Source: Calothrix sp. PCC 7716
GTDB lineage: Bacteria > Cyanobacteriota > Cyanobacteriia > Cyanobacteriales > Nostocaceae
Direction of reading: 5' to 3'
Assembly: GCF_019977735.1 (NCBI RefSeq)
Contig: NZ_AP025019.1
Span: forward strand, 310,001-374,000
Length of the DNA stretch: 64,000 bases
Shown here: one piece after another, positions 1 through 64,000 of the stretch
Layout of the letters: every line of letters starts with the position of its first letter
How positions within the stretch are numbered: position 1 is the stretch's first letter
Program-made: the position numbers and the translations under genes
Notes under the pieces: generated by a model
Seen by the model: the letters and a program-made list of their open reading frames with translations, nothing else
The model's database searches: none
What the model was told of the DNA's origin: nothing

Positions 1-1
1 A

Positions 2-679
2 TATAAGTGGGCATTGAATAGCTCTTTTGTGGGTGGTTCTCTCGTCGGCGCCTCGACCCAGGACTACCCATGCTTCGATGAAGTACTTGGTCATACTAAA
101 CTTGATGTCCCTACACATCAAAAGCTAACAATACATAGATACCATCAAATCAAAAAGCACCTGAAAGACATCCATATTGAATCGACGGTGGAACTACATG
201 CGAGTTTCATGGATTACGCTAACGAGGAATGTGATTATGAACTTGATGATATCTATGACCAAGTTTATGAGGAATTAGATGAACGCGACCTACCGTATGT
301 AATACCCATACTACAAGGTAAAACAGTATTGGACTATCTAAGTCATCTTGCTCAATATGGCGATGCTGTTGCACAAAATGCGTGGGTGGGAGTTGGGGGG
401 TTAAAGAGGCGCCCAAACAGTGAAGTGTCTTCAATACTGACTTCAATCAAAATGCAGCGACCAGATATAAAAATACATGGTTACGGGTTATCAAAAAAGC
501 AGCTTAGTAGCAACGGAATCATCGGATTGCTTTTTAGTGCTGACTCAGCAAGTGGACAGCTAAGTGGTAGCAAAGGCAGCAAATATCAGAATAGTCGCGA
601 CCCGACATTCTCAATAGCATATGCACAAAATATTGACAAATTGACAATTCAAACAAATATTTTCAACGTTTGTTGTTAA
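2..679 (+). CDS. TGT/DpdA-like protein, 5' end outside window
   Basis: The frame is open from the first bases of the window, so the gene almost certainly starts upstream; the TTG at 14 is only the first possible start inside the window. The C-terminal half carries a pattern typical of the tRNA-guanine transglycosylase fold as seen in DpdA-like proteins: WVGVGGL near residue 123, a pI.tight HGYGL segment near 156, and SADSA near 176 at the usual position of the family's DSM/DSA element. TGT-fold enzymes exchange guanine for a 7-deazapurine in tRNA, and DpdA does this in DNA. Which substrate applies here cannot be told. No other dpd or queuosine gene is visible, and the genes downstream are unknown. 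Fold assignment is by motif only. Confidence 0.45.
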   Translation, partial: YKWALNSSFVGGSLVGASTQDYPCFDEVLGHTKLDVPTHQKLTIHRYHQIKKHLKDIHIESTVELHASFMDYANEECDYELDDIYDQVYEELDERDLPYVIPILQGKTVLDYLSHLAQYGDAVAQNAWVGVGGLKRRPNSEVSSILTSIKMQRPDIKIHGYGLSKKQLSSNGIIGLLFSADSASGQLSGSKGSKYQNSRDPTFSIAYAQNIDKLTIQTNIFNVCC

Positions 680-995
680 TGAGAGTCAGTGTAATTACAC
701 CTATCAAATTCATAAACTAATATGTGCTACAATACATCCCGCACCTGCCCCCTTTACTGCATGATGCCGTACTATCTCCAAATTCCGATAGTCCAAAATT
801 ATCAATACAAATAGTAAGTGGCGCCCACTGGTAATTTGATAACTGTTAGAAAAAACTGTCTTTTCATTATCGATTTGATGTGCGGTAGAGAAGCAGCATC
901 ACTTGATAGAATAAATAGGATTATTCAAAATACATTCAAACTAATCGCATATGAATTAGATAAACGCCATTCACAATAACTACATTCAAACACAA
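680..995. other. Gap without a recognised gene
   Basis: AT-rich intergenic stretch between two convergent genes. One GGCGCC site lies near 821. I see no open frame with protein-like composition on either strand and no clear terminator hairpin. Confidence 0.5.
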
Positions 996-1277
996 CTAAC
1001 AGTGCATCTTGCTATTTTTAACTAAATCTGGACTTTCCAGCATCATTAAATCACGTGCTGGATTGTCAATACATACAGGCGCCATGTTTAAACAATAGCG
1101 ATAAGCTGCTAAACCAATATTAGGATTCATGCCGACTATTGCCAAATACTGTTTCTTAATATCCGAACAAGGCTCAGTATTTTTTACAACAACATGCAAC
1201 CACTTGTTAACCTCAGATTCAGTTAAACTCCCATCTGCTAAAATTAATCTAAATTCTTCTATGCTAGGTAAACTCAT
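996..1277 (-). CDS. Hypothetical protein, 93 aa
   Basis: Unrecognised short protein. The first in-frame ATG (1301) gives an implausible eight-residue lead, so the ATG at 1277 is preferred; it begins MSLPSIEEFR. The body is predicted helical, with an ESEVNKWL segment and two conserved-looking cysteines in the second half. It has no signal peptide and no membrane segment. It lies alone on the minus strand, convergent with the partial gene at the window start. Codon composition looks coding, but no family is recognised. Confidence 0.45.
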   Translation of the reverse strand: MSLPSIEEFRLILADGSLTESEVNKWLHVVVKNTEPCSDIKKQYLAIVGMNPNIGLAAYRYCLNMAPVCIDNPARDLMMLESPDLVKNSKMHC

Positions 1278-1425
1278 TATATCTATAAATCTATAGTTCA
1301 ATATACTATGTTGCTAGCCTTTTGGTATGGCTCCTAAGCACCACTCCACAACTTTAGTAAGATTGAGAACATTTAAGCAATCTTTCAGTCATATAAGTTA
1401 ATTGTACTATTACCTACCAATAATT

Positions 1426-1788
1426 ATGATTAAACAATTATTCATTTCCAGCCTTATGCTTGTTTGTATAACACTGCCTGCAAAAGCGCAGTATGATTAC
1501 CTCCCTGGCTCAGATGCAAGTATTTACTTAGACTTGATAAATAATAATTTGAAAAAGGATAATAACCCACTACGCGACTTGCCCGATAAAGATAAATTAG
1601 AATACGGTCGCGGATATTGTGCCAAAAGACAAAATGGCTACACCTTAGCTCAAATTGCTCGCGACGTAATTTACAGTTTGAAAAATAACAACAATCTTGA
1701 TGATGAACAAAAAACCTACATACATAAATACGATGTAGTGGTTTCAGCAGCAGCATTAACGGTATTTTGTCCACAATACGCAAAATAG
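1426..1788 (+). CDS. Secreted DUF732-like small protein
   Basis: The ATG at 1426 gives a textbook Sec signal peptide: a lysine, a hydrophobic core of about 14 residues, then an AKA cleavage box near residue 20. The longer frame from 1402 would bury that signal. The mature part of about 100 residues has a YCAKRQNGYT segment, an IARDV/I helix and a final VFCPQYA segment. This resembles the two-cysteine DUF732 fold of small exported proteins of unknown role. Secretion is well supported; the family link is tentative. No strong Shine-Dalgarno sequence is visible. Confidence 0.55.
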   Translation: MIKQLFISSLMLVCITLPAKAQYDYLPGSDASIYLDLINNNLKKDNNPLRDLPDKDKLEYGRGYCAKRQNGYTLAQIARDVIYSLKNNNNLDDEQKTYIHKYDVVVSAAALTVFCPQYAK

Positions 1789-1913
1789 TACTTGTGCCAA
1801 CACCTTCTCAAAAGCAATAGCAGCAGCGATAAGATGTTATTTATGCTGCTACACATATAACTTTATTCAGGCAGCGTTTCCTTGAGGTTTTAAATTATGG
1901 TGTTGATCCCGCA

Positions 1914-5825: not shown

Positions 5826-6158
5826 ATGACTATTAAGTATTTTGAGAGAGTGTACACTGGACACGGTGAAGTATACGAATGCTTTTACGAAATGCCGAAA
5901 ACTAACGGTATTCATATAGCAGAAGATATTGGGGACAAATTGCCAAATAGTGAAAGACTTATTTATTTGGCTGTGTTTGGCAATTACTATGGTGTCGGTT
6001 CCTGCCGAAGGTCGGCACTTATGACATTAAGGAATTGTCCCAAAAAATTTATAAGCATCGATTCAAAAACGTGGTTCGGTGCCGCAGAACAAACAGAAAT
6101 GGAAAGCGAACTCATCAAAATTTGGATAAAAGCCAGAACATTATTATGGACACACTAG
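5826..6158 (+). CDS. Hypothetical protein, 110 aa
   Basis: Unrecognised small protein with a MTIKYFERVYTGHGEVYE start and an ERLIYLAVFGNYYGVGS hydrophobic middle. It overlaps the next gene by 13 bases in another frame, which suggests translational coupling with the paralogue-family protein at 6146. No signal peptide, no motif recognised. Confidence 0.45.
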   Translation: MTIKYFERVYTGHGEVYECFYEMPKTNGIHIAEDIGDKLPNSERLIYLAVFGNYYGVGSCRRSALMTLRNCPKKFISIDSKTWFGAAEQTEMESELIKIWIKARTLLWTH

Positions 6159-6871
6159 TAATATACCATCCACAATGCAAATTCATTAATGGTGCATTTA
6201 CAAGAACAGTATCGAAGAAAGTTTTCTGTCGAGATTCTAAAAGTAAATGGGTGTCACTATCACCCAAAAAAGAAGAAATATCAATAATACCAGTAACCCC
6301 AATTGGGTATGAGGATAAAGCGGCATACCTGACTGAAGCAGGTGCCTTGTCTCACCCACATTGGATGTACGAATATAACGACAAGGGGTATCAAAAACTC
6401 CATCCAGTCTGGGATGTGGAAGATTTTCCCGGTATGGTAGACCTGGAGAAGAACTTTTACTATCCAGTCACTTTAATCGATGGAAAATTAGTCGAAGTTG
6501 GCAGAAGTAACCCAAAATTATATACGCCATATTCAACAGATGTTACTGAGTGGAAAACGAACGTAGAAATTGCGATTGAGGCAATGAAGGCGCCTAACCC
6601 TGATGCTGCCGTGCAATTGCTTGGTTTGATAATAGATATAAACAAGAAATGTCTGAGTGCCAAGTGGGTAGGCGAATATGAATGGGAGTTGCTAGGAATG
6701 TTAGCTGCTGCAAGAAACAGTCCCGGTATACCGCAAAGACATACCGAATACGGTGATTCATGCATAACCGCAACGTGTATGGCAGATTTATATAGACTGC
6801 AAAAACAATCTAACGGATGGTGGATACACGACTCTGACAATGGTGCATTCCTATTTATAGTGTCTCGTTAA
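6146..6871 (+). CDS. Paralogue-family protein A (unknown)
   Basis: First of three related unknown proteins in this region. The ATG at 6146 (241 residues) is preferred over the TTG-led longer frame at 6035, because the extra residues lie inside the preceding gene and are not conserved. Shared blocks are TEAGALSHPHWMYEYND (about 65-80), a PVTLIDGKLVEV segment near 110-120, an IEAMKAPNPDAAVQLLGL helix near 150, and a C-terminal SNGWW followed by acidic residues. Proteins at 7012 and 9484 carry all four blocks in the same order. It has no signal peptide, membrane segment or catalytic motif that I recognise. Confidence 0.55.
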   Translation: MDTLVIYHPQCKFINGAFTRTVSKKVFCRDSKSKWVSLSPKKEEISIIPVTPIGYEDKAAYLTEAGALSHPHWMYEYNDKGYQKLHPVWDVEDFPGMVDLEKNFYYPVTLIDGKLVEVGRSNPKLYTPYSTDVTEWKTNVEIAIEAMKAPNPDAAVQLLGLIIDINKKCLSAKWVGEYEWELLGMLAAARNSPGIPQRHTEYGDSCITATCMADLYRLQKQSNGWWIHDSDNGAFLFIVSR

Positions 6872-7011
6872 CAATTAACGCCTCACTGTCAGCAGTGGGG
6901 CACTTATGGAAGTAACAACAATTACAGTTCACTCCCCAGTTGCCAAAATCCAATTCTAAGAATTTGAATAAAAATCAACAAATCAACAACTCACTAATAA
7001 TTTACTTACAA

Positions 7012-7704
7012 ATGCAACAAACAACACTCACTGTATACTTTCCAATCTGCCTCCAAAATACTGGCGGGCAATGGATAACACTGGCACACTTAAAAAAATA
7101 TATTCAAGACATCATTGAAAATTGGGTTGATTCAAATTATAAACAAGCTAACCCAATTCAGCATGATGTTGAGTACTTGACAGAAATTGGCGCCGCACAA
7201 CATCCGTACTGGATTTACGCTTATAACGATAAAGCGTATCACGTTTACCCAACATCTGATGTAAATGTAATTCCTCATGCAATTTCTAAAATAAGTGCCG
7301 ATTACAAATATATACCTGTCACCATAATTGATGGTAAATTGGTAGAGCTTGATAGCAGCGCGCCACCAATTTGTACAGCTTTTTCAAATTATGAAGCTGA
7401 TTGGGATGACAACATAGCATATGCGCTTGAAGCTATTAAATCACCACAACCCGACGCGGCAATTAAATTGCTCGGTTTAATGAGTGATATAAGCGAGGAA
7501 TGCCATTACGCCAGCTGGATAATGGGGAATGAACACGCTTTGCTCGAAATGATTAAAATCGATACCAACGTAATTAAAAGTGTTAATTACGGCATAGGTA
7601 AAGTTACAGGCGCGCAAATATTGGAGATGCAACGACTACGCGCAAGTAGCGGTGGTTGGTGGTACTGGGATATTGATGACGAACTTAGATTTGTAAAGGA
7701 GTAA
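7012..7704 (+). CDS. Paralogue-family protein B (unknown)
   Basis: Second copy of the family, 230 residues from the ATG at 7012. A TTG at 6940 would add 24 low-complexity Asn/Lys residues and is less likely. Blocks match copy A closely: TEIGAAQHPYWIYAYND, PVTIIDGKLVEL, LEAIKSPQPDAAIKLLGL, and GGWW followed by an acidic end. The N-terminal 60 residues differ between the copies. It is followed eight bases later by the 164-residue gene at 7712, which has a good AGGAG site overlapping the end of this frame, so the two are probably one operon. Confidence 0.55.
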   Translation: MQQTTLTVYFPICLQNTGGQWITLAHLKKYIQDIIENWVDSNYKQANPIQHDVEYLTEIGAAQHPYWIYAYNDKAYHVYPTSDVNVIPHAISKISADYKYIPVTIIDGKLVELDSSAPPICTAFSNYEADWDDNIAYALEAIKSPQPDAAIKLLGLMSDISEECHYASWIMGNEHALLEMIKIDTNVIKSVNYGIGKVTGAQILEMQRLRASSGGWWYWDIDDELRFVKE

Positions 7705-7711
7705 AAATAAT

Positions 7712-8206
7712 ATGAACAGCAAAAAACCTTGTATAATTAACCCAAAATACTATCCACTGCTAGCCAATTTGCTAGAAAAAGCATCAGACGAATACGCCAA
7801 TCGTTCTTGTAATGACTACGATTTAAGCCAAATCCTACCCGACGTAGAAGATAGGCGCCAACTAGCGAAAAGCATGGAGGAACAGAATGGCAGCCCTGAA
7901 GAATTTGACCCAGAAGACGATTACAACACCGTCAACGATTCGTGGTTATTTGGATATTTCGCATCTTTATTCGAGTCTTATACTACAGCAGCAGAAGTTC
8001 CAACAAACTCACAATTACAGCACGCTCATCAAGAATTACTCGCTGCTTACTCAATTATCGGCGCATTGCTTCAATTTATCGAAAAATCGGGCACAAAAGC
8101 AAATAATGAAGTAAGCAAACAAATCAATGACGAAATATTAACTATTAGAGAATGCTTGACGCACGCTGAAAACTGCTTCCCAAAATATCCTGAACAATTC
8201 TCATAA
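7712..8206 (+). CDS. Hypothetical acidic protein, 164 aa
   Basis: Unrecognised helical, acidic protein. Residues 45-75 are rich in Asp and Glu, and the C-terminal half is strongly helical (HQELLAAYSIIGALLQFIEK). The ribosome-binding site AAGGAG lies at the end of paralogue B, which points to translational coupling with it. No signal peptide, no metal motif. Its position between members of the paralogue family suggests a partner role, but that is inference only. Confidence 0.5.
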   Translation: MNSKKPCIINPKYYPLLANLLEKASDEYANRSCNDYDLSQILPDVEDRRQLAKSMEEQNGSPEEFDPEDDYNTVNDSWLFGYFASLFESYTTAAEVPTNSQLQHAHQELLAAYSIIGALLQFIEKSGTKANNEVSKQINDEILTIRECLTHAENCFPKYPEQFS

Positions 8207-8251
8207 CTCTAACTAATTGAACATGTGGCTCTCACGAGCCACCCTAATAAA

Positions 8252-8332
8252 ATGAACAAGTATACTGTATCAAATATATTAAATCAGGTTATTCTTGGTG
8301 ACTGTAAAGAAGTTTATAAATATTACCTGTAA
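8252..8332 (+). pseudogene. Stump of a DNA methyltransferase (N-terminus)
   Basis: A 26-codon frame, MNKYTVSNILNQVILGDCKE followed by six residues and a stop. The VILGDC(K/L)EVL pattern is the standard N-terminal AdoMet-binding lead of beta-class Type II DNA methyltransferases, where it is normally followed by a PDNSIDLIITSPPY-type catalytic block. Here the gene ends just before that block. The missing continuation is found at 52.9 kb, next to a second copy of the gene that follows here. I read this as the surviving 5' end of a methyltransferase whose body was deleted, leaving the partner gene 85 bp downstream. Confidence 0.6.
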
Positions 8333-8416
8333 TTAACGCAGGTAATTAATTTTAATTCATATTGAGTTTATGCCAATGCTTACGCAATAAACAGGTAATC
8401 ACTACAGTGTAAAAGT

Positions 8417-9316
8417 ATGTCACTAACTAAAAAGATAATTGCCAAGTCTCCTATTTTAGAATGGTTTGAAGCGCGCAGCAATGCAGGAATCGATAAAATT
8501 ATCAGTAATGCTAATCAACATTTCGCAACAGCAAACTCTCTACAAAGAGGTGAAACATTAAAGTCCACGAACATTGGATTAATCAAAGCTGCTGCTGTGT
8601 ATGGCTTACTCAAACATATTGGTTACATCAATGGAGATAGGAATTGGATAGCTAATACTTACGCAAGTAAATATATCCAAAAAGATAAATTCGATTATTG
8701 GTTTACGGGAATATTCACTAAATCAATGTCCGAGGAAGCTATTCAATGTCTTATAGCAGGCGCCGGCGATATCTCATATCGAATAGGACGAGAACATAAC
8801 TTTCTCAAAGACATTAGCCAGCACATTGTTGACAACAAAGATATTTTCTCTGCTACATCCAATCAAAGATGGGCTAAAACCTGGAAAAATATTCTTGAAG
8901 ATACTCAATTACTCGTAGGGTATCTTCCCAGATGTTACAAGTGGGAGCCTCGTACATTACCTGTAATAAGTCCAACCTTTGAGCTAAGTAATCAAACTGG
9001 TGGCGCCGATGCCGACCTTATTATTGGAGATTCAGTTGTGAGTGTAGTTCCCGGTAGAGAATTTACACTTACAAACCTATACGAGCTTCTAGCATACACC
9101 TTGCTAGATACAGACGATACTTACTCAATCAAAAAATTAATATGGCTATTTCCTTTACGTCAAACAGCAGTTGTAGTTGAGTGTAACAAACTATTCCACA
9201 ACATTCAACGAACGCGCGAAGAATTTAGAGAAATGGTTGAAGCTAATTACCAAGTTGACGAATTTAACAGCAGTACTGACAGCTTTGACACTCTAAAGTA
9301 CTCATCTCAAAAATAA
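8417..9316 (+). CDS. Restriction-endonuclease-like protein, catalytic core altered
   Basis: A 299-residue protein whose C-terminal half resembles a PD-(D/E)XK nuclease family: a PTFELS lead, GGADADLIIGD near 195-205, then FTLTNLYELLAYTLLD and an FPLRQ block. In related proteins known to me the strand after ADLII carries a D-x-K (DIKTT-like) element. Here it reads SVVPG, so the expected catalytic Asp/Lys pair is absent. The gene follows a methyltransferase stump, consistent with a former R-M pair. A truncated paralogue (53044-53454) shows the same loss (SVVVE). The box TGCTTACGCAATAA lies 27 bp upstream. The protein may be an inactive relic or have another role. Confidence 0.6.
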   Translation: MSLTKKIIAKSPILEWFEARSNAGIDKIISNANQHFATANSLQRGETLKSTNIGLIKAAAVYGLLKHIGYINGDRNWIANTYASKYIQKDKFDYWFTGIFTKSMSEEAIQCLIAGAGDISYRIGREHNFLKDISQHIVDNKDIFSATSNQRWAKTWKNILEDTQLLVGYLPRCYKWEPRTLPVISPTFELSNQTGGADADLIIGDSVVSVVPGREFTLTNLYELLAYTLLDTDDTYSIKKLIWLFPLRQTAVVVECNKLFHNIQRTREEFREMVEANYQVDEFNSSTDSFDTLKYSSQK

Positions 9317-9346
9317 TTTAGTGTACAATCAATATCATATTCATTC

Positions 9347-9377
9347 AACCCATGAACACTCATGGGTTTTATTTTTT
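9347..9377 (+). terminator. Rho-independent terminator after the nuclease-like gene
   Basis: A perfect 9-bp stem (AACCCATGA / TCATGGGTT) with a 4-base loop is followed by a T-rich run. It sits 30 bp after the stop codon at 9316. Confidence 0.8.
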
Positions 9378-9483
9378 CAAACCCTCTATACAAAAAAAAA
9401 TATCAAAATTAATTAATTCTTTTCAATTTAATCGCATATAGCTACGCAAGCAATCGCGAAGCGTAAAACAATCAAAATTAACT

Positions 9484-10320
9484 ATGTGCGACCAAATTAG
9501 TGTTTTCTTTCCAGCGATTATTTATGTAGGTAATCAGTACGTTCAGACGGTTAGGCAAGAAACGTACTTAGAAAATCCAGCCACAAAAAAATGGCATTTA
9601 TTTCAGTTTAATTATCCATCGGGTAAAAGCTGGAGAGCCATAATAAATAACAAACCAAACTTCTGCCCAAAATGCCCAAGCATTTATGTTACTAAATTTG
9701 AAAGTTATGAGCAGTTCTTTGAGGCAACAAGCAGTAAAGCTAAATATTCGCCAATAAACTCAAAATTTGCATATTTATCTTTAATGGGCGCCTCTAGACA
9801 CAACTTGTTTTATGCACTTGATGTAGACGGCAAGTTCCGCCACATTGGTTTGACTCAAATGTTGGACGGCTGGGTAAAACCTGATGCTCAAAAGATTGTA
9901 CCTGTACAATTAACGCCAAATGGCAGGATAATCCCATTGCCGCATGGCACTACTTTACCAAACAGATTTGAAACCGTACACCAACCTTTGGTTAGTTCAA
10001 AGCAAGGCGCCAATAACCTACACCTTGCAAAAGAAGCACTAAAATCAGATTCTCCAGACGGCGCCTTATTACTTCTTGCTTTGATGAGAGAAATATCAAT
10101 TCAGTCATTTGGTAGCGTGCTGCCTGGAGTTGATATAACGCTCGGTGGGTTTGTTGATGCCCAAGTACAAGAAGTCAACAACAATGGCAAGTGGCGAATA
10201 ACAGCTACCCAAACGCGGATGCTGCACTGTTTATTCCGTGAAGCAAACGGATGGTGGGACTGGATTTGGGATGGAAACGGTAACTTTAGACCTATATTCC
10301 AACCAAACATTCCTGCATAA
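9484..10320 (+). CDS. Paralogue-family protein C (unknown)
   Basis: Third and most divergent copy of the unknown family, 278 residues. The matching blocks are LMGASRHNLFYALDVDGKF, VPVQLTPNGRIIPL, AKEALKSDSPDGALLLLALM and the C-terminal EANGWWDW. The N-terminus begins MCDQISVFFPAIIY, close to the TVYFPICL start of copy B. A CPKCP segment near residue 60 is unique to this copy and could bind metal. The gene stands alone after a terminator, with its own GCTACGCAAG box about 35 bp upstream. Function is unknown. Confidence 0.55.
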   Translation: MCDQISVFFPAIIYVGNQYVQTVRQETYLENPATKKWHLFQFNYPSGKSWRAIINNKPNFCPKCPSIYVTKFESYEQFFEATSSKAKYSPINSKFAYLSLMGASRHNLFYALDVDGKFRHIGLTQMLDGWVKPDAQKIVPVQLTPNGRIIPLPHGTTLPNRFETVHQPLVSSKQGANNLHLAKEALKSDSPDGALLLLALMREISIQSFGSVLPGVDITLGGFVDAQVQEVNNNGKWRITATQTRMLHCLFREANGWWDWIWDGNGNFRPIFQPNIPA

Positions 10321-10465
10321 ATATGTGAGTCGGGCAAACACCACGTCCGACTCCAAGCATTATTAATGTTTCACATTAAATTAAAGTTTTCGCAAAGATT
10401 TAGTAAACTAAAGAACATTGTACGAACTGTGCAAGTCAGTAGAATCGACGCTAACTATATTTACT

Positions 10466-10626
10466 TATATAGCAATCCTAAATGAGTTGTAAAAAAATAA
10501 GATATTTTAAACTACTTAATCTTATTTACTAGCAAAACTTAAGCTCGTGACCCCCAAAGGGGGTCACGGCGCCATAAAAATTAAAGAAAAAAGTACTTAG
10601 GAAACTTTAAATATAGAGTTAGTATA
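10466..10626. repeat. Left terminal inverted repeat of the IS
   Basis: Imperfect inverted repeat of about 160 bp that pairs with 12090-12247. Near 10550-10575 it holds a GTGACCCCC / GGGGGTCAC hairpin with a three-base loop, followed directly by a GGCGCC site. The hairpin is present in the right repeat too. A repeat of this length is unusual for IS630 elements, whose ends are usually a few tens of bases. Confidence 0.75.
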
Positions 10627-12247: not shown

Positions 12248-12253
12248 CGAGCA

Positions 12254-52516: not shown

Positions 52517-52658
52517 AGCTAGTAAGAAGATGAAAGCAGAAGCTCTCTCACTGCGTAAAGGGGAAGCGGCGCCGAAGAAAGAAGCGGTTACAGAAAATAC
52601 CCAATCCGGTAGTAAGTTTGCTATGCCTATTAAACGCAACAAGGCGGATTGTAATTGA

Positions 52659-53057: not shown

Positions 53058-53454
53058 TGGGTATCTTCCCAGGTGCCATAAGTGGGAACCACATAACATC
53101 CCAGTAATAAGCCCAACATTTGATTTATCCGCGCGTATCGGTGGCGCCGAAGCCGACTTAATTGTTGGAAACTCGATTATTAGCGTAGTTGTTGAGCGTG
53201 AATTTACGCTCACAAATCTCTACGAGCTACTAACATATACACTGCTCGATACAAACGACATGTACTCCATCCAAAAGTTAGTTTGGTTGTTCCCACTGCG
53301 TCAAACATCAGTAGTACTTGAGTGTAGCAAATTATTCCACAACATTCAGAATACACGCAAACAGTTCAAAGCAATGATTGACGAAAACTATCCTATTGAC
53401 GAGTTTAACAGTGTAAGTGACAGCATTGATACCTTAAAGTATTCATCGCACTAA
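53044..53454 (+). pseudogene. Truncated copy of the nuclease-like gene
   Basis: Corresponds to the C-terminal 45% of the protein at 8417-9316: GYLPRCHKWEPHNIPVISPT, GGAEADLIVGN, FTLTNLYELLTYTLLDTNDM, FPLRQTSVVLECSKLFHNIQ. The first 165 residues are gone, replaced by the methyltransferase remnant in another frame. Like the full copy it lacks the D-x-K catalytic element (SVVVE). The ATG at 53044 could start a 136-aa product. Confidence 0.7.
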
Positions 53455-53540
53455 ACAAAAGTAATAGCAACGTTTTGATATTGGCTTAAATGCTATTGCT
53501 AGTACTGAAGGAGGGATAATACATTAACTTATCTAGACAT

Positions 53541-53708
53541 ATGGAAAAAACAAAGATTTGGATAACACAAAAACTTGTCACCGCTTATAACGACTTTCAG
53601 GGTAATTGGGATGACCCAAGAACATGGGTCTTTAATAATAACCCAAGTACTAGCACAATGCGTGCCATCCGGCTCTTCCGTACTTTACGTGCTAAAATGT
53701 TAAGGTAA
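53541..53708 (+). CDS. Small hypothetical protein, 55 aa
   Basis: Begins MEKTKIWITQKLVTAYNDFQ with GNWDDPRTWVFNNNPSTSTM and a basic end (RAIRLFRTLRAKMLR). An AGGAGGG lies 26 bases upstream, too far to be ideal. Short but with a good start and sensible composition. No family. Confidence 0.35.
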   Translation: MEKTKIWITQKLVTAYNDFQGNWDDPRTWVFNNNPSTSTMRAIRLFRTLRAKMLR

Positions 53709-53913
53709 TTATCTTTCGTTTCAGTGAAATCAGTTAGGAAAAGGGTTTTAACCGAGCTGTTAAATTTGCCTGACGTAGTAGTATAATCCAGTCTACAAGA
53801 GGGTAAAACCTTAATTTTATCAGTAACTAAAAAGACTAAAAGTGCAGTATGCCGTTATTTGCGGTAAAAAGTCAGACCATCTACACCAAAATCAAAATTA
53901 CTTAATTAAAGAT

Positions 53914-54268
53914 TTACCGCGCTTGAGACAAGGATGTTGCGCGCGCTATTCTGTGAAATCCCAACCCAAACATATTAGCTACGGAAGCTGTACTAATACC
54001 TGCATCCGCAATTGCCGAAATAATCGCTGTTGTTACATCTTGATGACTGTATGCAATACGGTCAAACCCTTTAACTGCTGATGGTGACACATGCTCTAGT
54101 TTCATTTGTCTTTCTAGAACCATTCGACTATCGGCGCCAATTTCACGGTCAACAATAGTCACTTTTGCTTTGACCACATCTTTAATTGTTCTGATACCTA
54201 ACGGATTTCCTTGTGGTACTAACAGTCCTTCTTGCCAAGGTAAAAGGTGATTTACTCCGAAACATTAC
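53914..54268 (-). pseudogene. Periplasmic-binding-like domain fragment
   Basis: An open stretch without a start codon reads LLPWQEGLLVPQGNPLGIRT, then VKAKVTIVDREIGADSRMVL, GFDRIAYSHQDVTTAIISAI and ADAGISTASVANMFGLGF. This is the PBP-like domain seen in molybdate-type regulators and binding proteins (COG1910), with the NREIGAxSR(M)L and SHxDVAxAI...ADAGI signatures. Both ends of the domain are missing, and the frame closes after FGLGF. A relic. Confidence 0.6.
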
Positions 54269-54578
54269 TTATATTTAAAGGTTAACAAAAACATCGGTTT
54301 GACTATAAAAACATTTAGTAAGTTAGCTTTAGTGTTCAATGAACAAAAATATATAGAATATATGATTAATATTTTATTTGCTTTTACCCTGTTAAAAAAA
54401 ATACCGATTGATTAAAAACCAGGACTCTGCGTCATATATATGGTGTAAACACTAAAAGATAAATACTTAATGAAAGCAATCTTTTCGAGTTCTTTATTTT
54501 TCTTATTTAAAGTAGACGATATAAATTTATCTGACCAGTCTGAACAAGAAAAATTATATTTTATTAGAGGAAAGTAGA
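54269..54578. other. Intergenic region before the PsiE-like gene
   Basis: AT-rich noncoding stretch of about 310 bp. It should hold the promoter of the PsiE-like gene; no clear box is visible. Confidence 0.4.
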
Positions 54579-55040
54579 ATGGGTAAGTACAAGTTAAGAT
54601 GGTTTAAGCGCACTAGTATTATTAACAATCTCATTTTTTTTCAAGACTTGATTGTTATATGTGTATGCTTTGCTCTGTTTGGGGCAATGATAGTCCAGTT
54701 AGCAGATATGTTTCATGCCTTAATATATATTCGCAATCCCCAAGAGGTTACATCTGACACTTTAATTTTATTGATTTTAGTGGAATTATTTCGGCTTTTA
54801 GTAACTTATCTTGAGGAGCATCGTATTTCTGTTGAAGTAGCAGTAGAGGTAGCAATAGTCTCGATATTACGAGAAGTCATTGTTCGAGGTTTGCTCGAAT
54901 TTGCCACAGGTAAGATTGTTGCAATTGGAGTTTTCTTGCTTGCTTTAGCAATATTGTTACGAGCTAGACCTTGGTCTTTCCTTGATGAGAAAATTGATGG
55001 TCATAATAGTGATGCAATGGACGAAGAAAATTCAAAATAA
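54579..55040 (+). CDS. PsiE-like phosphate-starvation membrane protein
   Basis: A 153-residue membrane protein with an AGAGGAAAGTAG ribosome site. Four hydrophobic helices: about 20-42 (FFQDLIVICVCFALFGAMIV), 62-80, 93-110 and 115-130. The centre carries LVELFRLLVTYLEEHRISVE followed by VAIVSILREVIVRGLLE, the pattern of the PsiE family (phosphate-starvation-inducible). The real function is not known. It lies in a segment with an alkaline phosphatase, which fits a phosphate theme. Confidence 0.85.
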   Translation: MGKYKLRWFKRTSIINNLIFFQDLIVICVCFALFGAMIVQLADMFHALIYIRNPQEVTSDTLILLILVELFRLLVTYLEEHRISVEVAVEVAIVSILREVIVRGLLEFATGKIVAIGVFLLALAILLRARPWSFLDEKIDGHNSDAMDEENSK

Positions 55041-55065
55041 TTTTTATTTGTGGAGACTGTAGATG

Positions 55066-55095
55066 TGTAGAGACGTGATTAATCACGTCGCTACA
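55066..55095. repeat. 30-bp near-perfect palindrome
   Basis: TGTAGAGACGTGATT and AATCACGTCGCTACA are complementary with one A/G mismatch. Elements of this TGTAGAGACG...CGTCTCTACA type are dispersed in many cyanobacterial genomes. It lies 26 bp after the PsiE-like stop and can serve as its hairpin terminator. Confidence 0.75.
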
Positions 55096-55374
55096 TTAAG
55101 CCATAAAGGGGTTATAGCTTGGAAAAACTTTCCCGAAATTTTACAGTTTGCAATTGTTGCTTAAATTTCGCCTGTGGCTATTAATTAAAAAAGTCTTGTG
55201 TTTTGTGTTTTTTACGGTAGTGTAATGGTGCCGACCAAGTTACCATCTTATTGATTTAGAACTAAATTTGCAGGATGCTTTTTTCCAGTTGTAAATTAAT
55301 TAAGAAAATTTATGAATGTGTAAGTGAACACAGGTATATTGGTAAATCTGCTGAACATTTATTGTCAGAACAAC

Positions 55375-56173
55375 CTATGTAAGCTTACGTAAAATATCTG
55401 TAATTTGGTGCTGTTTATTAAATAAGGACAAAAACGCCAAAATCACAACCCCGATTGTTGCTATTGCAGTTCCGCAGGCTTGGGCAAAGATAATGATAAT
55501 CTGGTAGCGTATTGCATCGTTAGGATTGGCGCCTGCAAGTATTTGTCCTGTCATCATTCCTGGTAAACTGACTAATCCCATTACCATCATTGAGTTTATT
55601 GTGGGAGTCATACCAATTCTTAAAGCGTCGCGAATAATTTGATGCGCTGCTTCCGCTCCGAGTGGCGCCCAACGTTAGTAAAGCTTCTACTTGCTGTCGC
55701 TTACTCGTTAAATCTTCCATAAATCTATCTAATGTTAAAGATGTACCAGTTAGGGCATTTCCCAAAACCATGCCAAAAAAAGGAATTAGATATTGTGGGT
55801 CATACCAAGGATGAACTCGAATTATTCCGCTTACGGTTATTCCTGTGACTAAAAACGAAGCACTCAACAGAGATACAAAGTTATTCCAGTAAATACTTTG
55901 AAATCGTCTACGGGTACGGCTGATACTTGATATACCTGCTATTGTTGTCATTCCCAAAGCTACAAGTATTACTAAAAAAGGATTTTGCAGTGTGAATACC
56001 CATTCAAGCACGTAGCCGACAAGTAATAATTGCAGCACCATCCTAACTGAGGCGATGAAAAGACTTCGCTCTAATCCTAAACGTAGTACTAACGAAAGTA
56101 CTATATTAATGAGAATGAACAGAATTGATAATGTAAGTTGCCCGTAACTAATTGAGATATAATTGGCTTCCAT
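55375..56173 (-). pseudogene. fetB: Iron-export ABC permease FetB, frameshifted
   Basis: ATG 56173 starts a UPF0014/FetB permease: MEANYISISYGQLTLSILFI, LRLGLERSLFIASVRMVLQL, GMTTIAGISSISRTRRRF, GMVLGNALTGTSLTLDRFME and VEALLTLGAT. At about 55665, at a GGCGCC, the proper frame moves by one base: AAHQIIRDALRIGMTPTINS, MMVMGLVSLPGMMTGQILAG, then a last membrane helix to 55375. All conserved parts are present in two frames, so the lesion is a single indel, biological or technical. Its ATG overlaps the stop of fetA. Confidence 0.8.
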
Positions 56174-56874
56174 TATTTATTTTCCTGCAAACTAATTTGG
56201 CGCCTGGTAACACGTTGAAGCTGAACTGGGTTATGACTTGTCCAAATGTACGCGCGTTGTTGGTCTTCACTTTGCCAAGCAGTTACTAAAGCTTCCAAAC
56301 ACTTTTCAGTTTCCGCATCGAGTGAAGCGGTGGGTTCATCTAAAAGTAAAATCGAAGCTTGTAGCTGCAACGCACGTAAAAACGCCACAATTTGACCCTC
56401 ACCACCAGAAAGAGCATTTACAGGAGTTTGCAAAAAATCGGCGCCGCGATTAAAAAGCTGTAAGTAATCTAATATTCTATTACGGTCATACCTTTGATGA
56501 CGGTGAGTAGCCAAACGATAAACTTGCTTTATATTCTCTTCGACTGTTCCTTCCCACAAAGCAGGTCGCTGCTGCACATAAATTATTTGAGAACGGTATT
56601 GTGGCATAAAGTGGGAATTTATTGATTTTCCCTGAAAGATAATTTCTCCCGACTGCACAGAGTCAAGACCAGCTAGCGCGCGTAGCAGTAAACTTTTTCC
56701 CGAACCCGAAGCACCGACCACTGCTACTTGCTCCCCTGCCTGCAACTCAAAACTCAAATTACGCCATACCCATCTATCCTGCACTTTTCTACCTAAAGAA
56801 AGTACTGACAAAATTGGATTTGTGCCAGATAGTTCTCTTGAACTAAATTGGTTTGTAGTTAATTGATTTGTCAT
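56173..56874 (-). CDS. fetA: Iron-export ABC ATP-binding protein FetA
   Basis: A 233-residue ABC ATPase with Walker A GASGSGKS (about 54-61), Q-loop VQQRPALWEGTVEENI, signature LSGGEGQ, Walker B ILLLDEPTASLD and H-loop WTSHNPVQ. The permease starts at the last base of this gene (TAATG overlap), the usual FetA-FetB arrangement that exports iron or protects against oxidative stress. If fetB is truly frameshifted, the transporter is inactive. The N-terminal 20 residues are an unconserved lead. Confidence 0.85.
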   Translation of the reverse strand: MTNQLTTNQFSSRELSGTNPILSVLSLGRKVQDRWVWRNLSFELQAGEQVAVVGASGSGKSLLLRALAGLDSVQSGEIIFQGKSINSHFMPQYRSQIIYVQQRPALWEGTVEENIKQVYRLATHRHQRYDRNRILDYLQLFNRGADFLQTPVNALSGGEGQIVAFLRALQLQASILLLDEPTASLDAETEKCLEALVTAWQSEDQQRAYIWTSHNPVQLQRVTRRQISLQENK

Positions 56875-57304
56875 GATCTATTGATACTTCTGAGTCTATT
56901 TTTTGAAATTCGGTTTATATCGATTTCATTAGTTATGGCAAGTCATTAGTCATTTAGGCTTTCTTTTTGTTTTTTTAGCTATTGGTATTAATAGATTTCG
57001 TAGCCAATTGTAACCAAACCCAAAATTTATCCAGTTTGGAAGCATAAGCAGACAAATGTAACTGAAACTACTATGCTTAATAGTACAACAAGCTAGTACT
57101 TATTCATAACTATAATTTGAAAAAGAGAGTTTAAAACACTTTCAAATCTTATTACTTAACATCTTTTTAATAAAAAATGCACTCTTTTCTTAACCTATAG
57201 GTGAAAAACTTAGAAATACTGAGTATAGAGTTTTATCTATATATCACGGTGGCAATAGTGTAAATGAACTGATTTCACCGCAATAAGAAAGGAAATACAT
57301 TTTT
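56875..57304. promoter_or_regulatory. Divergent control region, possible Pho-box halves
   Basis: Intergenic region between fetA and the alkaline phosphatase. CTTAACAT-CTT-TTTAATAA (about 57155) and CTTAACCT (about 57193) resemble cyanobacterial Pho-box half-sites (CTTAACCT with 3-base spacers), but the array is incomplete. An AAAGGAAATA site precedes the phosphatase ATG. Confidence 0.35.
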
Positions 57305-59665
57305 ATGACAAAGAATGTCATTATCATGATTGGTGATGGCATGGGCTGGGAAATGGCTCGTGCTGCTGCAATTTATAAACAAATTCAAGCTGGTAAGCAA
57401 GGTACTAACTTAAGTGATTATTATACGGCGGGCGAAGGTAAAGGACTTAGCTATCAAGATTTGTCAGGCTATACACTCGCTACAACATACGGTACAACAA
57501 TAGCTGACAGTAAAGGAGTTTACAGCACTAATAATTCTGCGTTAGATGGCTCAGACCCCGTAACAGGAGGTAGTGGCGTTCGTCCAGGTTTTGAATTTAA
57601 CCCTACTTTTAATCCTGGGGCTACTGCTGCTGGAGGTGCTTTAATTGCTGATGGTGTAGTCGGTAACTTGGTTGGATATGACCCTGTGCGTGGTGGCGCC
57701 ACTCCTTGGACTCCCGGAACAGATAAAGAGTATATCAAGTACAGTTATCCAGATTCTGCGAATACTGCAACGACTTTATATACAGGTGTCAAAAGCTATA
57801 ACAACGCTATCGGTGTTGATATTTATGAACAACCTTTAGAAACAATCTTGGTAAGTGCAAACTTACAGGGTAAGTCAACAGGTTTGGTGACATCAGTACC
57901 TATAGACCATGCTACCCCTGGCGCCGCAGCGGCAGCTGTGAACCGTAGAAGTAAGTACGACGGCGAATATCCAAATATAGATAACATTCTTCAGCAAGAG
58001 TTAAGAGTTTATCAGCCTACCGTATTGCTAGGTGGTGGACATCCTTTATCGAATACAAAAGACCCATTACCCGAAGGTGTAGAACCACCTCGCACTGAAG
58101 ACTTTGTTACTGAAGAAACTTACAACGAACTTAGCAAAAACCCAAATAGTAATATTTACGATTACACCTTTTTGGAAAGAGGCGCCAATGCTGCTGCAAC
58201 GTTAGCTGAGACTGCAAACAATCTTGACCCGAATAAAGGTGAACGTTTATTCGGTTTATATGGTGCGCGCGGGCAAAATGGTAATTTACCTGTAAGTTCA
58301 GCAAATGGAGATTACAGCACGACTGGGCTCGATATGTTCAGCGTGTTTTCAACCAAAGGGGAGAAGGTTGATACTAAACGTCCTTTACTTCCGGGAGAAA
58401 CAGACGCATCTTTCATTGCTACAGAACGCAACGAAAACCCTACACTCAAAGAGTTAACCGATGCAGCATTAAATGTATTAAGTAAAGACAAAGATGGTTT
58501 TTGGTTAATGGTCGAAGCTGGTGACATTGACTGGTCAGCACACGACAACAACATGGATAACTTAATAGGTACTATGTTGGATTTTGATAAAACTGTTACT
58601 TCCACGATTAACTGGATTGAGAATAATGGTGGTTGGGAAGAAAACCTGCTAATTGTCACTGCTGACCACGACCATTATCTAACACTCAACCCAGATTTCC
58701 CTGGTTTGGTACAATCGCTTGGGGGTCAAGCGTTGACTGATTTGGACACACCGGAAGAAGTTGGTCATTACTGGGGTTCAGATCCAAATGTGAAATACGG
58801 TTGGGGAAACCATTCTAACCGTCCCGTACCAGTTTATTATCAAGGTGCAGGCGCCGATGTTTTGACAAATTATATTGGTGCTGGTTACGAAAGCTATGGT
58901 TATCAAGTTCCTGGAAACCCAGGTCTTGTAGACCAGTCGCAAATTTACAAAACAATGTATGCTGCGGTTACTGGTTCTGCTGATAAACCAACACTAAAAG
59001 GTTCTCAAACCTATTATGGTGACAGCAAAGATGACATCTTCTATGGTGGAGCAGATAATGATACTTTCTACGCTGGAGAAGGTAATAACTATATCTTTGC
59101 TAACCAAGGTGATAATAAAGTATACACTGGTGTAGGTAATGACCTTATTTACTCAGGTACAGGTAAAGACCTTATTTATGCAGGCGAAGGAATTAACAAT
59201 ATCTTCTCCGGTGCTGGCGATGATACAATTTATACTGGTGCTGGTGACGACCAAATATATGCAGGTGCAGGAAACAATTTAATTTACGCTGGCGAAGGTA
59301 ATAACTATATTACTGCTGCTGGTAGTGGTAACAATATTGTTTATACAGGCGCCGGCAACGATGAAATTCGCACTGGTGCAGGAAATGATTTAATCTACGC
59401 TGGTGAAGGTAAGAATATTATTGCAGCAGGTACTGGTAATGATACTGTATATGCAGGTAGTGGTGCCGATAAATTTATCTTAGATGCAGGCGCCGATTCT
59501 GTAACCATTTATGGATATTCAACAAATGACCAGCTTGCACGTGGTAGTACTCTCAAAGCAACAGATTTACTTTCTGTTAGCTTAAGTGGCAACGATACTT
59601 TAATTCGTGTCGGTAGTGACTTACTTGCAACTGTGAAAAATACCACTTCTGTAACAATCGCTTAA
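57305..59665 (+). CDS. Alkaline phosphatase with calcium-binding repeats
   Basis: A 786-residue PhoA-type phosphatase. Metal and active-site blocks: IMIGDGMGW (D11), the nucleophile Ser in YPDSANTATTLYTGVKSYNN, SVPIDHATPGAAAA, EAGDIDWSAHDNNMDN, VTADHDHY and WGNHSNRPVPV. From about residue 575 the tail holds many nonapeptide-type GxGxDxIY repeats (GAGDDTIYTGAGDDQIYAG style), which bind calcium. There is no N-terminal signal; the repeat tail fits type I secretion. It releases phosphate from organic esters outside the cell. With PsiE nearby, phosphate-starvation control is likely. Confidence 0.9.
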   Translation: MTKNVIIMIGDGMGWEMARAAAIYKQIQAGKQGTNLSDYYTAGEGKGLSYQDLSGYTLATTYGTTIADSKGVYSTNNSALDGSDPVTGGSGVRPGFEFNPTFNPGATAAGGALIADGVVGNLVGYDPVRGGATPWTPGTDKEYIKYSYPDSANTATTLYTGVKSYNNAIGVDIYEQPLETILVSANLQGKSTGLVTSVPIDHATPGAAAAAVNRRSKYDGEYPNIDNILQQELRVYQPTVLLGGGHPLSNTKDPLPEGVEPPRTEDFVTEETYNELSKNPNSNIYDYTFLERGANAAATLAETANNLDPNKGERLFGLYGARGQNGNLPVSSANGDYSTTGLDMFSVFSTKGEKVDTKRPLLPGETDASFIATERNENPTLKELTDAALNVLSKDKDGFWLMVEAGDIDWSAHDNNMDNLIGTMLDFDKTVTSTINWIENNGGWEENLLIVTADHDHYLTLNPDFPGLVQSLGGQALTDLDTPEEVGHYWGSDPNVKYGWGNHSNRPVPVYYQGAGADVLTNYIGAGYESYGYQVPGNPGLVDQSQIYKTMYAAVTGSADKPTLKGSQTYYGDSKDDIFYGGADNDTFYAGEGNNYIFANQGDNKVYTGVGNDLIYSGTGKDLIYAGEGINNIFSGAGDDTIYTGAGDDQIYAGAGNNLIYAGEGNNYITAAGSGNNIVYTGAGNDEIRTGAGNDLIYAGEGKNIIAAGTGNDTVYAGSGADKFILDAGADSVTIYGYSTNDQLARGSTLKATDLLSVSLSGNDTLIRVGSDLLATVKNTTSVTIA

Positions 59666-62983: not shown

Positions 62984-62999
62984 TTGAATAACTGTTCAA
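62984..62999. promoter_or_regulatory. SmtB/ArsR-type operator between aztA and aztR
   Basis: TTGAATAACTGTTCAA matches the SmtB-family operator half-site pattern TGAACAnnnATTCA (read on the minus strand as TGAACAGTTATTCA). It lies 58 bp from the aztA start and 66 bp from the aztR start, in the only common control region. Confidence 0.75.
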
Positions 63000-63065
63000 G
63001 TATTATATTTATTTACTAAAGATGATATAATGTAGAGTGATAATTATTCTTTAAAACTAAGGTAA

Positions 63066-63485
63066 GTGGTGAAAAAAGCTGTTTATAAGAAAAACGTAGA
63101 CAAGTATCAAGACGACGGCGCCTCCCTTGAACAGATACACTGTGATGAGCATTTAGTCCACCTCGATAGTGTACGTGCATCAATGCCAAAGCTTTTGCCC
63201 TTAGATAAAGCAAAGGAGATGGCATCCGTTTATGCAGTGCTGGCAGACCCAAATCGCTTACGATTAGTCTCTGCACTAGCTTCACAGGAGTTATGCGTTT
63301 GCGATTTGGCTGCATTGACTCATATGAGCGAATCTGCGGTTTGTCATCAACTGCGTCTATTTAAAGTAATGCGTTTAGTTAAATATCGTCGTGAAGGAAG
63401 AAAAATTTATTATAGTTTAGCGGGTAGCACTATTTTTAATCTTTACAGCGTTTTGGCAGAGGATTTAGGAGACTCACAAGCCTAA
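63066..63485 (+). CDS. aztR: ArsR/SmtB-family metal sensor (AztR-like)
   Basis: A 139-residue winged-helix repressor. The alpha-3 metal-site motif ELCVCDLA is present, and the N-terminal arm carries the extra ligands IHCDEHLVHLD, giving an alpha-3N site. The alpha-5 ligands (D-x-H...H-x-x-E) of SmtB/ZiaR are replaced by AGSTIFN and AEDLGD, so only the alpha-3N site should work, as described for Anabaena AztR. Recognition helix: MSESAVCHQLRLFKVMRLVK. Metal binding should release the operator and allow aztA expression. GTG 63066 start, AAGGTAAG site just upstream. Confidence 0.9.
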   Translation: MVKKAVYKKNVDKYQDDGASLEQIHCDEHLVHLDSVRASMPKLLPLDKAKEMASVYAVLADPNRLRLVSALASQELCVCDLAALTHMSESAVCHQLRLFKVMRLVKYRREGRKIYYSLAGSTIFNLYSVLAEDLGDSQA

Positions 63486-63517
63486 TTTTTGATAGGTTTT
63501 TAGGATAACTAAAGTTG

Positions 63518-63640
63518 CTACTGTATTTCCTGATTAATCGAACGTTCTAACTCCTGGTCTTGCCAGGAAACAGGGTCTTCTACAGGTTCTAGGTGAGTTG
63601 TAACGTGGGTTAAAGGCAATGCTCCACTAGATAAGACAAA
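63518..63640 (-). pseudogene. Cation-efflux (CDF) transporter C-terminal remnant
   Basis: An open stretch without a start ends LSSGALPLTHVTTHLEPVED, PVSWQDQELERSINQEIQ-stop. HVTTHLEP is the usual C-terminal cytoplasmic segment of cation diffusion facilitators. The membrane part is missing. It sits 3' of aztR on the opposite strand and downstream of the riboswitch-like element, so a metal-transporter gene was probably deleted here. Confidence 0.6.
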
Positions 63641-63837
63641 ATTAATAAAAAAATAAGCTCAAGTGATTAAAATTACCTTGTTGCATTAGCATATTATTTT
63701 TAAATATCTTAATTATTTATTTCAGGGGTGATCTTGTTTAAGGGAAAATATTGTCTAGTCAAATATTAACAACAAGTTATATTCAATTTTCTCCACTTAT
63801 TTATTGGTGGAATTTTTGCTAAAATTCCCTTTTTCAG

Positions 63838-64000
63838 AGGCTCATGGCGTTGTGACCAAGGCAATAAACCATCGTACTTGACGTAGTATTGGCTCGCACA
63901 TTGCAGTATTGGGTTGCAGGACAGCGTCGGATTTACACCAAACTTTCCCCGTTACCTCTAGCGGCTGTTCCCCACTAGAACCGAAACTGATTAGATATTT
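63838..64000 (-). promoter_or_regulatory. Cobalamin-riboswitch-like element
   Basis: On the minus strand the sequence reads GGGGAACAGCCGCTAGAGGT, then AACGGGGAAAGTTTGGTGTA, AATCCGACGCTGTCCTGCAA, CCCAATACTGCAATG and GAGCCA. The GGGAA...GGTG.AAATCC...GC(T/G)GTCC(C/T)GCAAC core is the cobalamin (B12) riboswitch consensus. The B12-box/kissing-loop part downstream is less regular, and the 5' end may lie beyond the window. Downstream on this strand there is only noncoding DNA and a CDF remnant, so the switch seems to have lost its gene. Confidence 0.65.

What the first reader, a model, noticed from the sequence alone, without database searches (positions are those of the whole stretch)
1..64000. 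GGCGCC is a hyper-iterated palindrome here, in place of HIP1
By hand count about 110 GGCGCC sites occur; at 38-40% GC about 3 are expected. They fall in genes and in gaps alike. GCGATCGC, the usual cyanobacterial HIP1, was not seen. The near-variants GGTGCC/GGCACC are also frequent. A second, lineage-specific iterated palindrome, perhaps tied to an orphan methyltransferase or DNA topology, is suggested.
Basis: partly seen in the sequence, partly recalled or inferred. Interest (0 to 1): 0.75.

Follow-up and report, generated by a model that had tools for sequence, protein, structure and literature searches.

The report
GGCGCC replaces HIP1 across a genus
A six-letter DNA word, GGCGCC, is sprinkled through this cyanobacterium about every 600 letters in place of the usual cyanobacterial word; the swap was reported in 2015 in a relative, and here it proves shared by all seven sequenced genomes of the genus looked at and actively kept, together with an unpartnered DNA-marking enzyme.

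Summary
The window holds 110 GGCGCC where about 3-5 are expected, and no HIP1. It is part of a 384,612-base secondary contig of a 12.37-Mb cyanobacterial genome with 20,380 GGCGCC. It is not a new kind: Elhai 2015 (PMC4390886) described GGCGCC as an alternative HIP in Calothrix PCC 7103 and linked it to GrCGyC methyltransferases. New here: (1) all 7 held genomes of the genus have 7,475-20,380 copies, the other 210 of the family at most 1,053, and HIP1 is down to 31-163 in the 7; (2) the 7 share a C5 methyltransferase of the BsaHI/HindV (GRCGYC) type, and none shows the matching restriction enzyme that 39 of 55 non-genus carriers have; (3) sites are kept at silent codon positions; (4) near-variants GGTGCC/GGCACC look like decayed sites, in excess on plasmids and most in this window. 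Best reading: an orphan methyltransferase marks GG(m5C)GCC and a methylation-coupled process (biased repair, or selection on the mark) keeps the sites. Methylation was not measured; repair bias and selection cannot be separated here.

The parts
1..64000 (.). 110 GGCGCC sites (palindrome, both strands). First bases: 47, 408, 820, 1078, 2358, 2739, 3390, 3546, 3836, 4660, 5520, 6589, 7189, 7854, 8759, 9002, 9787, 10006, 10060, 10568, 11395, 11784, 12141, 18575, 20729, 21837, 22904, 23669, 23855, 24122, 24382, 24477, 24783, 24952, 25137, 25658, 27395, 27917, 29477, 29609, 30156, 30278, 30433, 31390, 31908, 32310, 35190, 35541, 37279, 37444, 37644, 38422, 38539, 38909, 38981, 39402, 39463, 39527, 40329, 40538, 41037, 41307, 42124, 42560, 42591, 43046, 43111, 43962, 44496, 45011, 45485, 46335, 47322, 47627, 47767, 47856, 47978, 48129, 48256, 48317, 48458, 48682, 49399, 49740, 49852, 50781, 51331, 51394, 51520, 52499, 52568, 53143, 54133, 55528, 55664, 56199, 56440, 57695, 57920, 58181, 58850, 59348, 59489, 59969, 60336, 60907, 61357, 61562, 62005, 63117
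   Evidence: list printed
6078..59467 (.). 46 one-step variants GGTGCC (23) and GGCACC (23), first bases 6078 to 59462; read here as mostly decayed sites (C to T at the third base on one strand or the other)
   Evidence: positions; ratio to intact sites 0.42 in the window against 0.11 on 400 kb of chromosome
12147..18574 (.). longest site-free gap in the window (between the sites at 12141 and 18575)
   Evidence: site list; not followed further

Best explanation
GGCGCC is the resident highly iterated palindrome of this cyanobacterial genus, standing where HIP1 stands in its relatives. A C5-cytosine methyltransferase of the GRCGYC (BsaHI/HgiDI/HindV) type, left without its restriction enzyme, marks the third base, GG(m5C)GCC, on both strands. 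The mark is used by a methylation-coupled process, most likely strand choice in mismatch repair as Elhai proposed, so that changes away from the site are reversed or purged and changes toward it favoured. Sites thereby stay at about one per 600 bp on chromosome and plasmids; the commonest one-step relative is the C-to-T product GGTGCC/GGCACC. SHOWN: abundance, distribution over the genus, near-absence of HIP1, presence of the methyltransferase in 7 of 7 genomes, no detectable restriction partner, maintenance at silent positions, C3-to-T excess on the plasmids. INFERRED: that this enzyme is active and acts on GGCGCC, which base it methylates (from the homologue M.BsaHI), and that repair rather than selection does the keeping.
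For: Distribution: GGCGCC 7,475-20,380 in 7 of 7 genus genomes (control word 1-8), 0-1,053 in the other 210 family genomes; HIP1 31-163 in the 7, 30-8,803 in the 210. Enzyme: L010 protein (331-aa query) 83-100% identical in 7 of 7. In 6 of 7 it lies between the same two neighbours, a RuBisCO-like gene (Pfam PF00016) and a gene I read by eye as SLH plus glycosidase-like; not in G341. Partner: the ORF before the enzyme outside the genus is Pfam RE_HindVP (one ORF scanned, E 2e-154); relatives of that ORF are in 39 of 55 non-genus carriers and 0 of 7 genus genomes. Specificity: the 11 loci with that ORF hold no GGCGCC. [quoted passage not shown] A second C5 enzyme type (L232), possibly the CGATCG one, is in 202 of 210 non-genus genomes and 0 of 7 (E <= 1e-90). 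Maintenance at four-fold sites (relatives G339, G340, G342): third base of GCC in GGC|GCC changed in 9/167, 11/197, 5/95 against 85/440, 121/520, 97/213 for other GCC; third base of GGC in 11/172, 25/204, 8/97 against 22/101, 38/118, 17/50. Where this genome has GGT|GCC the relatives' Gly codon is GGC in 8/12, 12/14, 4/4. Polarised counts: losses 34 against 69-75 expected; gains 6 against 0.6, 4 of the 6 from GGTGCC/GGCACC. GGCGCC has the highest observed/expected conservation of the 35 (G340) and 21 (G342) palindromic hexamers with enough aligned copies.
Against: No methylation data. Five C5 methyltransferases of this genome (L009, L010, L013, L017, L019) have open-frame orthologues in the smallest genus genome G343, so another could be responsible. 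The GRCGYC-type enzyme is not sufficient: none of 55 non-genus carriers has the abundance, and the 16 of them without a detected restriction partner have 2-277 sites. Its recognition domain shows no genus-wide change from the homologues outside, so it does not explain why GGCGCC rises while GGCGTC, GACGCC and GACGTC stay rare (0.03-0.39 of expectation). Taken at face value polarised losses outnumber gains 34 to 6, which is a net decline, not equilibrium; parsimony may misplace fast sites. Kilobase-scale saturation, part of Elhai's model, is not clear: spacing is near random (CV 0.99; gaps over 2 kb 2.9% against 3.1% expected), with only mild under-dispersion (variance/mean 0.85-0.96), and conservation does not depend significantly on distance to the next site (P 0.10-0.22). 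On the chromosome C3-to-T loss is not raised: fitted rate 2.26 for two targets, 1.13 each by my division, against 1.01 for the general and 1.39 for the GC-rich control; the regain rate is too imprecise to use (95% interval 0-11.8).
Confidence: 0.5

Rival explanations
1. Selection on function: the (methylated) GGCGCC sites do something useful, such as marking self DNA, aiding transformation, conjugation or recombination, or organising the chromosome, and individual losses are weakly selected against; repair bias plays no part.
For: Silent-site maintenance fits weak selection as well as repair bias. PMC6604393 (passages) reports reduced conjugation without CGATCG methylation in Synechocystis and cites Xu et al. 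2018 for selection on HIP1 (that paper is not held).
Against: C3-to-T variants are in excess on the plasmids while C6-to-T variants are not; uniform selection on the whole word would be expected to raise both where it is relaxed. Sites lie in all frames, in and outside ORFs and on every contig sampled; a positional pattern along the chromosome was not tested.
Confidence: 0.32
2. GGCGCC is an uptake-sequence-like word, maintained by preferential uptake and recombination of DNA that carries it, as with the DNA uptake sequences of Haemophilus and Neisseria (recalled comparison).
For: Similar order of density (one per ~600 bp), presence in genes and gaps, maintenance at silent sites.
Against: Known uptake sequences are longer and not palindromic (recalled). 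The shared methyltransferase and the loss of HIP1 would be unexplained.
Confidence: 0.08
3. A different methyltransferase of the genus (L009, L013, L019, or an enzyme outside PF00145) makes the mark, and the GRCGYC-type enzyme is a passenger.
For: L009, L013 and L019 orthologues (87%, 90%, 80%) occur in G343 too. Enzymes outside PF00145 were not searched.
Against: Only L010 was tied, by a restriction partner in its relatives and a characterised system, to a motif that contains GGCGCC. L009, L013 and L019 were not tested for specificity.
Confidence: 0.15
4. By-product of base composition, codon usage or repeats.
For: Two genomes of the order (G059, G116) exceed 1,000 GGCGCC per Mb and are also rich in the control word, so composition can give high raw counts.
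Against: Order-1 observed/expected is 17.6-21.6 in four genus genomes; codon shuffling gives 32 +/- 5 against 584 in 400 kb; the window has only four self-similar blastn pairs over 80 bp.
Confidence: 0.01

Closest known systems
GGCGCC alternative HIP of Calothrix PCC 7103 and Calothrix D253 (Elhai 2015, PMC4390886)
   Different: Elhai had one genome plus 19 kb of D253, called exceptional HIPs sporadic and not in clades, thought a second methyltransferase copy may have been critical, and wrote that the methylated base was known for no enzyme of this specificity. Here 7 of 7 genus genomes have it; G343 has a single copy; PMC2413257 gives the methylated base for M.BsaHI.
HIP1 (GCGATCGC) of most cyanobacteria
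   Same: Dense palindrome tied to orphan methyltransferases; m5C on its CGATCG core in Synechocystis (PMC6604393, passages).
   Different: Different word and enzyme; HIP1 sits at background here (66 against control 64).
BsaHI / HgiDI / HindV restriction-modification systems (GRCGYC)
   Same: The methyltransferase is homologous to those that sit beside RE_HindVP-family genes.
   Different: No restriction partner detected in any of the 7 genus genomes; GGCGCC enriched, not avoided.

Membership tests
Highly iterated palindrome (HIP), alternative form GGCGCC | Palindrome over-represented far beyond composition, genome-wide | tested here: met
Highly iterated palindrome (HIP), alternative form GGCGCC | HIP1 at or near background in the same genome | tested here: met
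   66 against control 64; genus 31-163 against controls 37-75
Highly iterated palindrome (HIP), alternative form GGCGCC | A methyltransferase whose motif covers the word | tested here: inconclusive
   homologue of GRCGYC-type enzymes in 7 of 7; motif of this protein not measured
Highly iterated palindrome (HIP), alternative form GGCGCC | Sites methylated in the cell | not testable with these tools
   no methylome data
GRCGYC type II restriction-modification system | Cognate endonuclease (RE_HindVP family) present | tested here: not met
   0 of 7 genus genomes at E <= 1e-10, all first-look candidates scored
GRCGYC type II restriction-modification system | Recognition domain like the homologues that have the partner | tested here: met
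   7 genus against 30 other sequences: three positions differ by the criterion used (48, 243, 306); the stretch IDEPSPTIR is the same in all 7
G-meC-directed mismatch-repair ratchet (Elhai model) | Gain bias toward the word | tested here: inconclusive
   6 gains against 0.6 expected (P 4e-5), 5 of the 6 on one branch, and losses 34
G-meC-directed mismatch-repair ratchet (Elhai model) | Saturation at a kilobase-scale spacing | tested here: not met
   near-random spacing, no significant distance effect. Sites with a neighbour under 50 bp are less conserved in G340 (14/24 against 351/439, P 0.02), not significantly in G339 (P 0.055) or G342 (P 0.71)
G-meC-directed mismatch-repair ratchet (Elhai model) | A G-meC-specific nicking factor | not tested
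   factor is hypothetical in the paper

The most novel reading that the evidence does not exclude
A whole genus has exchanged its genome-wide epigenetic word: an orphaned restriction-type methyltransferase took over a role that the CGATCG enzyme and HIP1 play in the rest of the family, and rewrote some 7,000-20,000 sites per genome through methylation-directed repair, so that the repair-guiding mark of a bacterium can be swapped for another and the new word re-evolves at a matching density.
Probability: 0.3. Interest if true: 0.8.

Novelty: new member of a known kind. Interest (0 to 1): 0.5.

Why it matters
HIP1 has been known for decades without an agreed function (recalled). A genus that lost HIP1 and keeps another word at silent positions, with several cultured and sequenced members, makes the repair-bias and selection models testable by removing one methyltransferase. 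It also weakens one argument in Elhai 2015 for HIP1-specific function, that alternative HIPs occur sporadically and only HIP1 persists.

Tried and rejected
A second GGCGCC lineage in family f9 (G170, G008, G037, G060, G193; 1,031-3,403 sites): samples of three of the five (G170, G008, G060) have 43-50% GC and at most a mild excess (G170 58 against 36; GGCGCC not among the five most enriched palindromes in G008 and G060), with HIP1 present; all five lack a close relative of the GRCGYC-type enzyme (best matches at most 41% identical). Rejected; G037 and G193 were not sampled.

G059 (9,489 sites) and G136 (872), which carry a 55% and a 61% relative of the enzyme: G059 is GC-rich (54.8%; 86 against 25.8 expected in 41 kb); the G136 sample (54 kb) has 3 GGCGCC and a GCCGGC excess instead. 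Not the same phenomenon. G116 was not sampled.

Narrowed enzyme specificity (GRCGYC to GGCGCC) as the reason that only GGCGCC rises: no genus-wide change in the recognition domain.

Raised C3-to-T mutation at chromosomal sites: not seen per target. alone would suggest that C3-to-T losses are unprotected (25 against 24 expected); its context control is not codon-matched, and at four-fold sites they are reduced too. (200 kb) are superseded (400 kb).

Loss of the L232-type enzyme as sufficient cause of HIP1 loss: 8 non-genus genomes lack it at the cut-off used and still have 2,878-6,883 HIP1. Calling it CGATCG-specific is my inference, not a test. In genomes with many candidates only the best 8 were scored; for this genome and G343 the absence is borne out, where the closest own protein to L232 is 34% identical and no G343 protein was compared as its relative.

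Orphan enzyme = enrichment as a general rule: the 16 non-genus carriers without a detected partner range from 2 to 277 sites. Not supported.

Conserved neighbourhood in all genus members: fails for G341 (Calothrix HK-06), where the 83% copy lies on a 16.8-kb contig without those neighbours, next to a 63% copy, and a further 88% fragment lies at a contig end.

Literature: searches. In that library only PMC4390886 holds both Calothrix and GGCGCC; I found no later extension there. Most subscription papers are not held.
Full report
WHAT IS THERE. The window has 110 GGCGCC (2.9 expected from composition, 4.8 order-1, 5.1 order-2), first among palindromic hexamers, and no HIP1. With synonymous codons shuffled, 4.4 +/- 2.0 are expected against 61 in window ORFs, and 32 +/- 5 against 584 in ORFs of 400 kb of chromosome. 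The window is bases 310,001-374,000 of contig C2, 384,612 bases, of a 12,367,066-base genome in 10 contigs; C1 is 11.42 Mb. C2 is probably a plasmid: a Mob_Pre relaxase-like gene and two integrases lie in the window. Genome-wide there are 20,380 GGCGCC; density in 20 sampled stretches, on C1 and all nine smaller contigs, is 0.55-2.25 per kb.

PRIOR WORK. Elhai 2015 (PMC4390886; outline, passages and section 18 part 1 seen) reported GGCGCC as an alternative HIP in Calothrix PCC 7103 and in 19 kb of Calothrix D253, associated it with two GrCGyC methyltransferases, noted very low GATC, and proposed a G-meC-directed mismatch-repair ratchet.

A GENUS TRAIT. Of 217 family genomes, the 7 of this genus have 7,475-20,380 GGCGCC; the other 210 have 0-1,053. 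HIP1 shows the reverse: 31-163 in the 7, 30-8,803 in the 210. Of 291 genomes drawn from the order (this genome included, the other 6 of its genus not drawn) two others, G059 and G116, exceed 1,000 per Mb, and both are rich in the control word too. The outliers I sampled (G170, G008, G060, G136, G059) show a mild excess or none. By coordinates of the methyltransferase the genus includes Dulcicalothrix desertica PCC 7102 (G339), Calothrix PCC 7103 (G340), HK-06 (G341), NIES-4105 (G342) and the MAGs C42_A2020_038 (G343) and FI2-JRJ7 (G344). Elhai's statement that alternative HIPs occur sporadically and not in clades therefore does not hold for this one.

THE METHYLTRANSFERASE. This genome has 16 PF00145 matches, some of them fragments. 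One, L010, has an 83-100% relative in 7 of 7 genus genomes, between the same neighbours in 6 of 7; in G341 it lies elsewhere. Outside the genus 55 of 210 family genomes have a homologue at E <= 1e-50, at most 73% identical. In many loci there an ORF of about 366 aa precedes it; the one scanned is Pfam RE_HindVP. Relatives of that ORF are in 39 of the 55, some broken, and in 0 of 7 in the genus. In the 11 loci with that ORF the DNA around holds no GGCGCC; seven loci of other organisms without a detected ORF have 0, 0, 0, 2, 10, 1 and 0. PMC2413257 (passages and section 6; [quoted passage not shown] The genus enzymes keep the recognition domain of their homologues. G343 has one copy only, so a second copy is not required; G339 also shows one, with 10 of 21 candidates scored. 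Another C5 enzyme (L232), perhaps the CGATCG one, is in 202 of 210 non-genus genomes and 0 of 7; the 8 non-genus genomes without it keep HIP1.

SITES ARE KEPT. I aligned 400 kb of chromosome with syntenic regions of G339, G340 and G342 (108-258 kb aligned, 88-94% identity). At four-fold degenerate positions in ORFs of at least 150 codons, the third base of GCC in GGC|GCC changed in 9/167, 11/197 and 5/95 against 85/440, 121/520 and 97/213 for other GCC codons; the third base of GGC in 11/172, 25/204 and 8/97 against 22/101, 38/118 and 17/50 for GGC before other G-starting codons (P from 0.0004 to 7e-14). Protein constraint cannot cause this. Where this genome has GGT|GCC the relatives' Gly codon is GGC in 8/12, 12/14 and 4/4. 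Polarised counts: 34 losses against 69-75 expected and 6 gains against 0.6. The gains are few, 5 of 6 on this genome's own branch, and losses exceed gains, which would mean decline unless parsimony misplaces fast sites.

DECAY SPECTRUM. One-step variants by C3-to-T (GGTGCC/GGCACC) per intact site: 0.11 on the 400-kb chromosome stretch, 0.26 in the other C2 stretches, 0.22 on C3-C10 and 0.42 in the window; C6-to-T variants are 0.06-0.07 in all groups of this genome (window against chromosome P 3e-9 for C3-to-T and 1.0 for C6-to-T). Against it: on the chromosome the C3-to-T rate per target is not above background, and G340's chromosome stands at 0.20.

MECHANISM. Weak selection on each site and biased repair both fit; the data do not separate them. 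Near-random spacing and no significant dependence of conservation on distance to the next site speak against the kilobase saturation in Elhai's version. The other three GRCGYC words remain rare (0.03-0.39 of expectation in four genomes), which his model foresees for the half-sites (turned into GGCGCC) but not directly for GACGTC; a relic of past restriction is possible (inference).

VERDICT. A real, strong and already published kind of feature; this genome is a new member, with a better-resolved distribution and a silent-site test that I did not find in print for this word (library searches).

Noticed in passing
G000:C2:308900-309777, about 220 bases before window base 1: A decayed paralogue of the GRCGYC-type methyltransferase, in two pieces (199-aa frame, then a second frame), sits on the same contig just outside the window.
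   Followed up: partly
window and genus loci: CGCGCG (23 against 3.8 expected in the window) and GCGCGC (19 against 5.6) are also over-represented in genus genomes and absent from 40-kb samples of G353 and G461; conservation is modest (46/73 against 34.6 in G342; at expectation in G340).
   Followed up: partly
window 1-64000: GATC (22 against 147, order-1) and GGCC (6 against 112) are strongly depleted; both also in three relatives.
   Followed up: no
window 24396-26144 (-), 20613-21512 (-), 31235-32257 (+): Mob_Pre relaxase-like protein and two phage-type integrases: plasmid character.
   Followed up: no
window 57305-59662 (+), 60352-62967 (-): Alkaline phosphatase with RTX-type repeats; heavy-metal P-type ATPase.
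   Followed up: no
L034 (C2:1-20000) and L042 (C8:1-20000): GGCGCC density only 0.65 and 0.55 per kb against 1.35-2.25 in nine chromosome stretches; possibly recently acquired DNA, so site density might serve as a residence clock.
   Followed up: no
G136 loci L221-L223: GCCGGC is the enriched palindrome (58 against 11.6) with no HIP1 in 54 kb: resembles the rCCGGy case of Oscillatoria PCC 10802 in Elhai 2015.
   Followed up: no
G461 loci L229-L230: Family member with low HIP1 (535 in 10.7 Mb) and only 4 GATC in 40 kb but no GGCGCC there: a genome without an evident dominant HIP.
   Followed up: no
G341 contigs C60 and C207: Two adjacent copies of the GRCGYC-type methyltransferase (83% and 63%) on one 16.8-kb contig, plus an 88% fragment at a contig end.
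   Followed up: no
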